Assembly: GCF_964340395.1 (NCBI RefSeq)
Contig: NC_135555.1
Span: forward strand, 16,798,746 to 16,862,745
DNA from: Glandiceps talaboti
Taxonomy: Eukaryota > Hemichordata > Enteropneusta > Spengelidae
Reading direction: 5' to 3'
DNA length: 64,000 bases
The notes beneath the pieces are model-generated. The model did no database searches. It saw only the letters and a program-made list of their open reading frames with translations, and was not told the DNA's origin. Positions 32,301 through 44,300 of this stretch are shown here, one piece after another (the stretch's first letter is position 1; every line of letters begins with the position of its first letter). Both the position numbers and the translations under genes were made by a program.

Positions 32301-35300
32301 CAGCATAATTTCAAGTTTATTCCGAGCTCGGTATTACAGGCATTCGACTAGAGTCTTTATACCTCAAAGATATACAACAGTCCATTTCTGTACAAGGCAT
32401 ATCAGAAACCAAACATTTGCAGTGTGGAGTGTCACAAAACCCTGTGCTTGGTCCACTCTTACACGCGTATGCTGTCTATACACATCACCACTTGGAAAGC
32501 TAATCCGACATCAAAATCTCAATATGCAACAACATGCAGACGACAACCAGATTTACCAATATATTTCCCCAATCACATACGTCAACTACAGTAACTAAGA
32601 TGGAAACTGTTGCACATGATATTAAACGACCCAAAATAAGCTAGTTTAATGATGGCAAAACCGAGGTCCTCCTTATCACGTCTCAGTTCAACAGGCTTCC
32701 TCGTCTCATGAACCACATCAACATGGGATCGTCTTCTGTGCAGTTAGTGGATTCAGCATGTACCATTTGTGTAACAATTGATGACCGTTATAACCTCAAG
32801 AAGCACATCTCGTTGACATGTAGATCAGTTCTTTTTCACCCCCGAACAATAGGTCACATCATTGACAGTGGAGGGGGCCCCTCCACTGTCTATGGTCGCA
32901 TACGCCAGTATCTTACAAACGGAGTTTGTCAGAACCTTGGTCATGCACTTATATCATCGATACCTGACTACTGAATGGCCCTTCTGTATGGGCTGCCAGC
33001 TAAAAACATTGTCCCTCTTGAACATGCCCAAAATACAGCAGCAAGGATTGTGTCAGGTACAAAGAAAACAGATGACGTCACATCGGTTCTTTCAATAACA
33101 CAGTTTAGTTAGAAATCACACTGGCGTCAAGTGCAGTTACATAATATACCAGTAGGTAGGGCCTACATGTACATGTAGTCTCAGGTCACTACATTGTGGT
33201 CTGAGATGTAGTTTACACCACTATGACCTAAGAACTTGAACCAGGGCTGAGGAGAAGTGGTCTGAGGTTAAAGTTTTGCAGCTCTCGTTCAGCAATCTCA
33301 AAACATTTCAGCCTACTTCCCGTAATGAACACTTGTCAAGCATTTTTGTAGCTCCCATACTCAAAGACTACATATATGTTTATATACGACTCAAAATATA
33401 ACACTGAAATTTACTTTGAACACGTTCAGTTTCAGTAGACCTATTAAAACCCAAAATCTCCACTGTATAATTTAATATCGGTAATAGTTTACAGTCAAAA
33501 ACTTTTAAATTTAGTTTTGACTAGGAGTCCCCAAGTTTTGCAAGTTGACTCATGACCGCAATCATTGCTTTACTCGCTTGAGCTGCAAGCGCTAAATACC
33601 ATAGACCACTGCTTGACATAATCACGCCTAGATATTCATAAAAAGCGAACAACGTCGAGTTTATGACCACCAATAACCACTTTTCAATTTTCTTAAGAAT
33701 TTCATCTCTTAGTAAATACAATAATTTTAGTTTTGACATACATGTAATTTACTTTCAAAAGACAATGTTAGAAACCCCTACCCCATTGATTCCTGTGGGA
33801 ACATGCCTTTCGTGAAGAAAAAATGGTTACATAACATTGAATTGTTGGAGAATGTCTATGTAGAATGCCACACTGATCCCATATCCACACCTTGAGTTTT
33901 ATTTTTATTGTTCTTCAATGATCTCCTTCAAAGTAATAGTCTGGATGCCAATATGGTTTCTAACTAAACCACGTCTAGCCAAAAGCCCCTCAAATAGCAC
34001 AAAAAGTTGTTCACCCAATCAGTGAAACCTAAATGTTTTGGTGATGTAAACAGTATATAAGTAGCATCATGGGCTGACAAATATACCACATTTGAACATT
34101 ACTGTCCCAATAAACACTAACTTTATGAGGGACTGTGTTATTGGTTAGAGTTTTGTGATTTATTAACAAAGACATGGTGTTAATGACTGTGTGGGTGGCT
34201 GTAAATGAATTTTAAATTGCATCTCATGCATTTCAAGACTTCTAGAGTAACGACTCTGACTATACTTTGAGTGGAGGTATAAATGGTAATGATACAGTAT
34301 AGGAACTAGACTATCAAAGTAATTACCTTGTCCAAAAGACTACAGTCGGATATTAATCTCACCATTAATGCCTGAATTTATGTCTATCAAGGTGGATCTG
34401 ATAAGATCATGGAAATCGAGAAACTTTCATCACTTTGGACTTGAGCATTGAATACATTTGTGAAGTACTCAGACCATGATTCATGTTTTTTTTTAGAGAT
34501 TAATTCCACTAGATCGTCCACTAAATCGTCCACGAAAACAAATACATTCTATCATTCCACCATGTCACTCAACAACGCGCATCGAATTCTATCACTTGAA
34601 TTTCCGTTATTTAGTCGTCTGAAGATCGTAACGGCCTCCGTACCATAACTTGTGTACTTTGTGTAAATACAGCTCTACTTCTCAGTATTGAGCACTTTTC
34701 CTTCAGTTTATGACTTACCTCTTATATATATATATATATATATATATATATATATATATATATATATATATATATATATATATATATATATATATATATA
34801 TATATATATATATATATATATATATATATTACCACTGCTCGGTTGACGGCAACGCGGTCAAAGATATCGGGTTCTTTGCACAATACACGTGTATATAGAA
34901 ATGATGTCCCTTAAATTTCCCCTCTTTTCATTCTTGCTCTTTTCAACTACAATATAGATTTTGATAATTTCCATAGGTCTCACGAGATATACTCTTCAAG
35001 GAAAAACAAGTTCGTGTCGGGGTTTGACACGAGAATAGTCTGTGCTTGGAGTAATTATACTGTCAGTATAATTTCTCAAAGGTATGTGCATGGCTACTTC
35101 CATGGTATGTGTTATCGTGGAAGTTTAAACATTATTTATACTTTAATGGTGTTATAGATTTTGACCCAAGCTATGCATGCCACGGTCACAAGCTATATTG
35201 CGTCAGATCGATTTGCCAAACAAGTTTGCCAGAATTAACGCATCCCATCAAACCATGGACCCTCCACAAAGGTGGAGTGTCTATGGTCAAACAAATGACA

Positions 35301-41300: not shown

Positions 41301-44300
41301 GACTAAACCAAGTTTAGTGAGTGGAGGTGTAAATGGTAACGATACTGTTTAGGAACACGGTGATAGGAACTAGACGAGATTAGCACTGACAACACACGCT
41401 CCGCGAACTCCAGCAAAGAGGCCTGGTGGGGTATATAGAGACTTGTCAGAGTTGTCGGAGCTACTGTTCATGTACATATAAGTTCCACGTATTCTCAATT
41501 TATTTCGTGCTGGATAGAAAACAGTCAGTATAGTCCTTGTGTTCTCCAGTGTATAGCCGATGGATTGGATAGTGAGAGTCATGATATGTGTGATACATTG
41601 TAGTTTATACACCAGAACTGAATTTTAGACTGATCCCGTCGGCATCTTCAGAGAAAGCATCAAGCGGGTACCACAATAAACTGAAAACGTAACGACTATA
41701 AGCATAACTATAAGTTTTAATTTACATGGAACTACGGTCATATTTGATAAGCTTATCCCCCACTTCCACATATGGTCTCATACCCCTTGGTCAGCGAAAA
41801 GCCAATCATGTTCATGTCCGGACATACGAGTTATAAATGGGGCGGTCATATGGGTTAAGTTAGGGTGGAATATAATATATGGAAAAAGTCTGATTGATAC
41901 TGGCTGTGATGGGTAGTAGAGCATTTTTTAATTGTCAAAAACAGGGTTGGGGGCCGAATGATATGATTCAAAACGTCATGACTTTCTGGTATATCTTTGT
42001 TGTCATGGTGTGTTTCCAGTTGAGGATGGCTGTCTTTGACTGGCTACAACAGTAAGTGACTGATTTTGAAAGCAAAGAAAGTGGAAGAACATTGGTGTTA
42101 GTTAAAAAACTATTGTTATTAAAGATATACAAGTAAACGCAGCAAAACAATTGAGAGTCGGTACGGAAAGGAACAGATGACCACAGGAAGGTGTTCAGCT
42201 GTTCTTCATTGTTCTTTGCAATTTGACGACCGGGCGATCACATACTAGTAGTTGTCAGTGTTTTCGCTAAAGCAAAATACACGGAGATGGTTCAAAATCA
42301 CTTGACTATCATTTCACTCTTATTTAAATCTACAAATATCTCATTAATATTTTCTCCCAGCTTACTTCAAACTATATGACATTTTCCATGAAAAAAAGGT
42401 GCGTATCTGGAGCAAAGAAGTGTTTCAGATATCAGAGTGTTCACGTTTGCGTGACCAAGACATAGACATAGACTGGCAAGCGACGCCATGAATTGTGATC
42501 GAATCCCAGGGTCGGATCGGTTGTAGATCAGTGTTCATGATAATTCATTTGCGTGTTCAATTACTAAGTCATCGATGTAGGGTTATAAATTCAGTGACTA
42601 CACCATCAACAAAGTTACTTCTTACTATAAATCATGTTGAAAAAGACCCTGTCTAAGCAACAATGACGGGTGTTACTTTTTTGCAGTGTTTATCCAAATA
42701 GTAATCGTCGAATAACGTGACCCTGGCTGAAAACAGCGACAGTGAGTGTACCATAAATTCCCAAAACAGACTGACCAGAACAGACATATTGACACACAAA
42801 AAGTGTGCAAGTTTACATCTTGTGACAGGTTTGGTTGGGGTCACCTCCATCGGCTAATGGTCGAAATCGTCATTGTAAAATATTTTTAATTACCCTCAAC
42901 TACAAATCAGCGTATCGTTGACGATCATTTCAATCGTAAGTGTTTAGAACTGATTCAGAAGTAAAACGTAGAATTATTAATGACAATGGTATGCAAAGTT
43001 TTGTTGTTTAACAATCATCAGCGATTTGGCATGTTTGCACAAACCACAGATACTTGTTAGTGCATACACTTTTGATACTTCTATTCTATAAGGTAAAGGC
43101 TAAATTTAAAAAGACATGATCCCAGTATTAACTTTTTTGTTGCGGCTATATTTCCTAAGTGAGGTGTGCCAAAGAAAGTTTTCCCATGATACTTTGCGCC
43201 AGTGCGACTTTTTAACATTGTACGTTCGATGTTCCCAATGAGTAAATGGAATTTTATCGAGAAGTCTATTCATATTTGTTTATGACAGCAAGATATTTTC
43301 AATTTTCTGTTTTTGGTCATTTTTGGGGTCAAAAACTGTCATTTGTTTTGTAAATAAAAGAATTCAAAGTAAAAATGAATGACAGCCGCAAAACTAATCG
43401 ATTGAATGGGCTGACATTTGGTGTGCAGGTATGTTAGAGTATCTGGATGAAGAATTCTTCAAGAAAATTTGAAGATGACATTGATATGCAAATACGTCTA
43501 AAACGTGCTGTGTAGTATCATATTATAGCCATGTTATTTTACAATACTCGTGAGAAAGTAGAATTTATTGGTGAAGTAAAGTTGCTCATACACCTAAGAA
43601 AATTTGACTACACTTGAATACATAATGAGCAAATGAAATGATCACAACAATCACATATCTTTGTAATGTTATGACTATACAAGATCTAATACAGGGACGA
43701 ATGGGGTACTTATCAAATAATGCCCTCCGGAACTCAGAAATAAATGTAGATGCGCTGTACCATGCAGTTACGATCAGCGGTTTTGAACTATGGAGGTAGG
43801 AAGGAAGGAGGTAGGAAGGATTATAGTCCTACCACCATTTCTGAACAAAATCGTTGTCCTTGAATTGGAATGGTATGCTTTTAATACAAAAGTTGCACAA
43901 ACATATGTTCTTGCTTTCAAAAGTTTTAGAATTAACACCATGATTTCACCGTCGCCCATACTGAGGTTTTCCTGCATCTATTGCTATGGATTTTGTTGGT
44001 GGGACTTTGCTGTACTGTATGAACACTTGTTCAGACTCAGGCCACTAAAACACAATTGCAAAAAAACCCCGTAAAGACACGAAGTATCGTTTTGCACAAC
44101 GTTCGGCTTGAATCAGGTTTGAAGGGTAACCATGCACGACAGAGAAGATGGGTTTAGAGCCCCATTTACACCTAAAACAAAAAGCGATTCTAGTCTGTTC
44201 CTATTATAGTGGTCTGAGGTTCAGATCAAAGTGCCGCATTCATCCACAACATAAAAAATCATAGACCCTACACGACTGGCGTTTGTAAAAGTCAGTTTTA

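What the first reader, a model, noticed from the sequence alone, without database searches (positions are those of the whole stretch)
32853..41308. A family of 24-36-bp hairpin insertions with 7-bp target duplications (CATAGAC family)
Seen: four hairpins at 32860-32894, 35254-35285, 37476-37499 and 41266-41301. All end GTCTATG or CTATG and begin CATNGAC. Their centres vary in length, and three of the four share GTGGAGGG/CCCTCCAC. Each is flanked by the same 7-mer on both sides (two exact, two with one mismatch). This is the structure of a transposon shrunk to its ends. Elements this small are far below usual MITE size and would need a transposase acting in trans or another insertion mechanism.
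Basis: seen in the sequence. Interest (0 to 1): 0.92.

Follow-up and report, generated by a model that had tools for sequence, protein, structure and literature searches.

The report
Scars left by departed jumping genes
The tiny hairpins in this acorn-worm DNA are most likely not miniature mobile elements but scars left where P-element-like transposons were cut out, because each looks like the outermost ~17 letters of a transposon's two ends joined together between the copied target site.

Summary
In detail: four hairpins (24-36 nt) with CATNGAC/CTATG-type ends sit between 7-bp direct repeats (two exact, two with one mismatch). Five more of this anatomy lie in the window, including a second end family, CTCAGACCACT. 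The host is an acorn worm, most likely Glandiceps talaboti. The reading 'tiny transposon moved in trans' is probably wrong. A 183-bp element at 44036-44218 with exact 7-bp duplication has the CTCAGRCCACT ends, and no two hairpins share a centre. Hairpin lengths (24-46, median 32) resemble two-ended end-joining scars of the Drosophila P element (7-44, median 30, 44 of 66 isolates), whose transposase leaves 17 nt of each end at the donor site. The duplications lean to GT...AC, the published preference of the 7-bp P-superfamily elements 1360 and Galileo. A LINE frame and a repeat copy look like sites before insertion. Best reading: excision footprints of P-superfamily transposons repaired by end joining. 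Not shown: a P transposase or full-length element in this genome; the genome search did not complete (14 attempts). A new example of a known kind.

The parts
21204..21236 (.). Hairpin A, 33 nt, decayed left arm; flanks CCTAATC/CCTAATC exact
32860..32894 (.). Hairpin B, 35 nt; flanks GTCACAT/GTCGCAT (6/7); 17+1+17, 16 of 17 pairs; inside a LINE reading frame
33180..33205 (.). Hairpin C, 26 nt, CTCAGAC family; flanks ATGTAGT exact
35254..35285 (.). Hairpin D, 32 nt; flanks ATCAAAC/GTCAAAC (6/7)
37476..37499 (.). Hairpin E, 24 nt; flanks GTAAAAC exact; arms unequal (may be read as 7 + 17 nt, not certain)
40172..40201 (.). Hairpin F, 30 nt, decayed; flanks GTCTAAC/ATCTAAT (5/7)
41266..41301 (.). 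Hairpin G, 36 nt; flanks ACTAAAC exact; 17+2+17, 16 of 17 pairs
45344..45375 (.). Hairpin H, 32 nt, CTCAGAC family; flanks GTAGTAG exact; arms alike for 11 nt, then different
45549..45594 (.). Hairpin I, 46 nt, CACAGAC ends; flanks GGTCAAA exact; longer than 2 x 17, read as carrying filler
44036..44218 (.). Element M, 183 bp, ends CTCAGRCCACT, flanks GTTCAGA exact; the larger relative (one copy in the window)
32645..32974 (+). LINE reverse-transcriptase frame interrupted by hairpin B
4303..4947 (+). Related LINE frame used for the comparison with hairpin B
33937..33978 (+). Repeat copy with one ACTAAAC and no hairpin: unoccupied counterpart of site G

Best explanation
The hairpins are excision footprints of P-superfamily DNA transposons (several families, ends CATAGAC.., CACAGAC.., CTCAGACCACT..). 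Steps: (1) an element inserted and duplicated 7 bp of target [supported directly by the flanks, by element M, and by two unoccupied-site comparisons]; (2) a P-type transposase cut it out with a 17-nt stagger, leaving up to 17 nt of each end on the flanks as 3' tails [inferred here from lengths; the stagger is published for Drosophila P]; (3) the two tails were joined by end joining with small losses or filler, giving a palindrome of about 2 x 17 nt between the 7-bp repeats [inferred; variable centres and unlike arms are seen]. The scars are inert and did not move as 30-bp units.
For: Six of nine hairpins have exact 7-bp flanks, two 6/7, one 5/7. Element M has the same ends as hairpins C and H and an exact 7-bp duplication. 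No two hairpins share a centre. B is 17+1+17 and G 17+2+17. Lengths 24-46, median 32, versus 7-44, median 30, for 44 of 66 fly P junctions. P transposase cuts 17 bp inside the end (PMC7776569, passages). 1360 makes 7-bp duplications (274 of 279) with motif GTTNAAC and Galileo 7 bp with GTANTAC (PMC3276498 and PMC4168063, passages); here GT/AC half-sites are 8.5 of 20 versus 1.3 expected, reached in 0 of 20,000 random draws (the measure was chosen after seeing the duplications). With hairpin B and one repeat taken out, the LINE aligns ungapped over 51 residues to a second LINE, score 73 versus 57. Site G has a repeat copy with a single ACTAAAC and no hairpin.
Against: No P transposase or full-length element shown in this genome; none in the window (120 P-family proteins by tblastn, best E 0.023), and no listed named hit was from Glandiceps (120 rows each shown, most unnamed). 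The CTCAGAC ends do not start with CA as fly P and zebrafish Pdre2 do. Hairpin I (46 nt) exceeds 2 x 17 and needs about 12 nt of filler. No larger CATAGAC element was found in the window. The blastn match of M's last 17 bp to hairpin H (16/17) has E 0.081, and two unrelated window matches of M score the same, so it rests on the shared terminus. 22 of 66 fly junctions were left out of the length comparison, 18 of them long-microhomology joins leaving almost nothing; the flies were Rad51 mutants.
Confidence: 0.75

Rival explanations
1. Excision footprints of another cut-and-paste superfamily that makes 7-bp duplications and also leaves long stretches of its ends behind.
For: No transposase was identified; the CTCAGAC ends lack the CA start.
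Against: 7-bp duplication plus GT...AC target bias fits 1360 and Galileo, and the review describes the 17-nt stagger as unusual among cut-and-paste transposons (PMC7776569 passages).
Confidence: 0.15
2. Ultra-short mobile elements: 24-46-bp hairpins that insert as units, moved in trans by a transposase recognising the ends.
For: Exact 7-bp flanks and shared ends at several sites; unoccupied counterparts for two sites, which the scar model also predicts.
Against: No two of nine hairpins share a centre; arms are unlike at E and H. Drosophila P derivatives need at least 138 and 216 bp of their ends, and mosquito P-MITEs keep just under 100 bp (PMC1562414 passage).
Confidence: 0.06
3. Chance hairpins in a repeat-rich window.
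For: Shuffles give 1.7 such cases per window when one mismatch is allowed, and 5- and 6-bp flanks with one mismatch are also common (23 and 9).
Against: Exact 7-bp cases: 3 versus maximum 2, mean 0.13, in 60 shuffles; shared ends; 5 of 11 flank-blind candidates at 6/7 or better versus 0.9% background.
Confidence: 0.02

Closest known systems
End-joining footprints of the Drosophila P element (PMC2895639, passages and section 7 with Table 1 read)
   Same: Target duplication + up to 17 nt of each inverted end, with microhomology or filler, + duplication; similar length range
   Different: 8-bp duplication, laboratory-induced, one known element; here 7 bp, natural, several end families, element unknown
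1360 and Galileo, P-superfamily elements with 7-bp duplications (PMC3276498, PMC4168063, PMC2775673; passages)
   Same: 7-bp duplication, target bias GT...AC
   Different: Their ends were not compared with those here; no transposase is shown here
Zebrafish Pdre2 / THAP9 element (PMC10983969; abstract, passages, section 6)
   Same: Deuterostome P element with short (13-bp) ends starting CAT
   Different: 8-bp duplication; CATACCTGTCAAC, not CATAGAC
P-MITEs of Anopheles gambiae (PMC1562414; passages)
   Same: Small non-autonomous elements with P ends, as M may be
   Different: 8-bp duplications and 27-31-bp ends; relation to master copies shown there, not here

Membership tests
Excision footprint of a cut-and-paste transposon | Remnants of both element ends between a target-site duplication | tested here: met
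   Nine hairpins, 6 exact, 2 at 6/7, 1 at 5/7
Excision footprint of a cut-and-paste transposon | A fuller element with the same ends and duplication length exists | tested here: inconclusive
   Met for CTCAGAC (element M); none found in the window for CATAGAC or CACAGAC
Excision footprint of a cut-and-paste transposon | Centres vary from site to site | tested here: met
   No two of nine alike
P superfamily | 7- or 8-bp target duplication | tested here: met
   7 bp
P superfamily | Palindromic target bias GT...AC | tested here: met
   8.5 of 20 half-sites versus 1.3 expected, measure chosen after seeing the data
P superfamily | Ends start with CA | tested here: inconclusive
   CATAGAC and CACAGAC do, CTCAGAC does not
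P superfamily | Cut 17 nt inside each end, so about 17 nt per end is left behind | tested here: inconclusive
   8 of 9 hairpins are 36 nt or less and B, G are 17+1+17 and 17+2+17; I is 46 nt. The cut itself is not testable here
P superfamily | THAP/RNase-H transposase encoded by elements with these ends | not testable with these tools
   Genome search did not answer in 14 tries; none in the window
Ultra-short MITE | Near-identical copies of the whole unit at different sites | tested here: not met
   Not met within the window; genome-wide not tested

The most novel reading that the evidence does not exclude
Some of these 24-46-bp hairpins are themselves mobile, for instance a footprint recaptured by a transposase that needs only about 17 bp of each end, which would make them the smallest such elements I know of (from recall).
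Probability: 0.06. Interest if true: 0.85.

Novelty: new member of a known kind. Interest (0 to 1): 0.45.

Why it matters
It turns a puzzling class of 'tiny transposons' into readable scars. If nine in one 64-kb window is typical, this genome holds a large natural record of P-type excision and of how a wild animal's germline repaired the breaks. It also gives end sequences and a 7-bp target rule with which to look for the responsible elements in acorn worms, and warns annotators that short palindromes inside target duplications may be footprints rather than elements.

Tried and rejected
Rejected or empty: Rfam families (0 matches at gathering score) and tRNA genes by ARAGORN (0). P-transposase coding in the window: best tblastn E 0.023 with 120 P-family proteins. 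Larger CATAGAC elements: the scan for 50-4000-bp elements with exact 7-bp duplications returned only element M and an unrelated 154-156-bp palindrome; it would miss elements with imperfect duplications. P relatives in viral contigs: 20 stretches matched a pattern, none confirmed. Hairpins at 2908-2939, 35045-35081 and 60085-60113 have 6/7 flanks but not the family ends; left out. The opposite orientation of GTGGAGGG/CCCTCCAC is not fully explained: reading E as 7 + 17 nt makes its right arm resemble B (13 of 17), but its left reading resembles D's right arm more (15 of 17). The split of H as 15 + 17 is my reading: its right arm matches both ends of M about equally (16 of 18 and 16 of 17) and its left arm fits M's right end best (15 of 17). 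Papers: six searches for hairpins, footprints or hemichordate P elements listed nothing that I recognised as describing these hairpins or P elements in Glandiceps; I saw listings with starts of abstracts only, capped at the best 12-20 rows.

Full report
Host. The window is animal DNA. The stretch 61529-63211 (-) is 100% identical, over 94% of its length, to a Glandiceps talaboti ankyrin/armadillo repeat protein; the next hits are Ptychodera flava (84%) and Saccoglossus kowalevskii (69%). The window therefore comes from an acorn worm, most likely G. talaboti.

The observation. All four hairpins are present with the flanks described. In all, nine: 6 with exact 7-bp flanks, 2 with 6/7, 1 with 5/7.

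Chance. Exact 7-bp repeats around non-simple hairpins: 3 observed, mean 0.13 and maximum 2 in 60 Markov shuffles; with one mismatch 8 observed, mean 1.7, maximum 6. That scan's filters miss A, E, F and I, and three of its 8 hits are not family members. Exact repeats of 4, 5, 6, 8, 9 and 10 bp numbered 3, 5, 1, 0, 0 and 0; with one mismatch 5- and 6-bp flanks are commoner (23 and 9) than 7-bp ones (8), as shorter repeats are by chance, but shuffles of this scan were run for 7 bp only. A list of CNNAGAC-ended hairpins made without the flanks had 11 members, 5 of 11 with flanks of 6/7 or better, against 0.9% of random pairs. In viral contigs 0 of 121 CATAGAC-N-GTCTATG sites reached 6/7.

A larger relative. 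A scan of 50-4000 bp with exact 7-bp duplications returned a 183-bp element, M, at 44036-44218, with ends CTCAGGCCACTAAAA and, read inward on the other strand, CTCAGACCACTATAATA, and GTTCAGA on both sides. These are the ends of hairpins C and H. The right arm of H agrees with M's right end at 16 of the first 17 positions and its left arm at 15 of 17. The two arms of H agree with each other for 11 nt and then diverge, which suits two joined ends better than a palindromic unit. A blastn of M against the window found the 17-bp match to H, but with E 0.081 and two unrelated matches as good, so the claim rests on the shared terminus and the duplication, not on that score. M has one copy in the window.

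Why a scar. P transposase cuts 17 bp inside its own ends (PMC7776569, passages), so 17-nt 3' tails stay on the donor DNA. Table 1 of PMC2895639 (section read) lists the joined products in flies lacking Rad51: 8-bp duplication, up to 17 nt of one end, microhomology or filler, up to 17 nt of the other, duplication. Of 66 isolates I measured 44 (7-44 nt, median 30); the 22 left out are 20 long-microhomology joins (18 leaving almost nothing, 2 reaching past the duplication) and 2 short-microhomology ones that eat into a duplication. The nine hairpins span 24-46 nt, median 32. B is 17+1+17 and G 17+2+17, each with 16 of 17 pairs, like the fly product 17+2+16. Hairpin I would need about 12 nt of filler, as some fly products have.

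Why the P superfamily. 1360 makes 7-bp duplications (274 of 279) with motif GTTNAAC, P makes 8 bp with GTCCGGAC (PMC3276498, passages), Galileo 7 bp with GTANTAC (PMC4168063, passages). Over nine hairpins and M, GT at the start or AC at the end of the duplication occurs at 8.5 of 20 half-sites against 1.3 expected, reached in 0 of 20,000 draws; I chose this measure after seeing the duplications. CATAGAC and CACAGAC start CA as in fly P and zebrafish Pdre2; CTCAGAC does not.

Insertion histories. Hairpin B lies in a LINE frame. With 35 nt and one 7-bp repeat taken out, the LINE aligns without gaps over 51 residues to the LINE at 4303-4947, score 73 against 57. Hairpin G lies in a repeat whose copy at 33937-33978 has one ACTAAAC and no hairpin; the alignment runs 9 bp past the joint with 7 matches, a modest extension. 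For the other seven hairpins no spanning copy was found in the window.

What is not shown. No P transposase and no full-length element with these ends was found: none in the window, no row named Glandiceps among the 120 listed in each of two capped protein searches, most rows being unnamed, and the genome search did not answer in 14 tries. The class of the CATAGAC element is inferred from anatomy, and the repair pathway by analogy with flies.

Verdict. Best reading: excision footprints of P-superfamily transposons (0.75); footprints of another superfamily (0.15); truly mobile tiny hairpins (0.06); chance (0.02).

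Noticed in passing
29602-29755: A 154-bp palindrome (142 of 154 positions self-complementary) between exact 9-bp repeats TAAGGAGCA, which looks like a foldback or Mutator-type element (label from recall).
   Followed up: partly
45629-45801 and 28429-28601: A repeat at least 173 bp long, 97.7% identical in opposite orientation, just right of hairpin I; the query was cut at 200 bp of flank.
   Followed up: no
16149-17778: A long tandem array whose frames repeat HTAIQNTHHCLNLI (14 residues, so a 42-bp unit), open in several frames on both strands.
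   Followed up: no
35045-35081: A 37-nt hairpin with 6/7 flanks (GTCTGTG/GTATGTG) but different ends; possibly another footprint family or chance.
   Followed up: no
37918-37948: A 31-nt hairpin CTTGGAGGA..TCCTCCAAG with no 7-bp flanking repeat.
   Followed up: no
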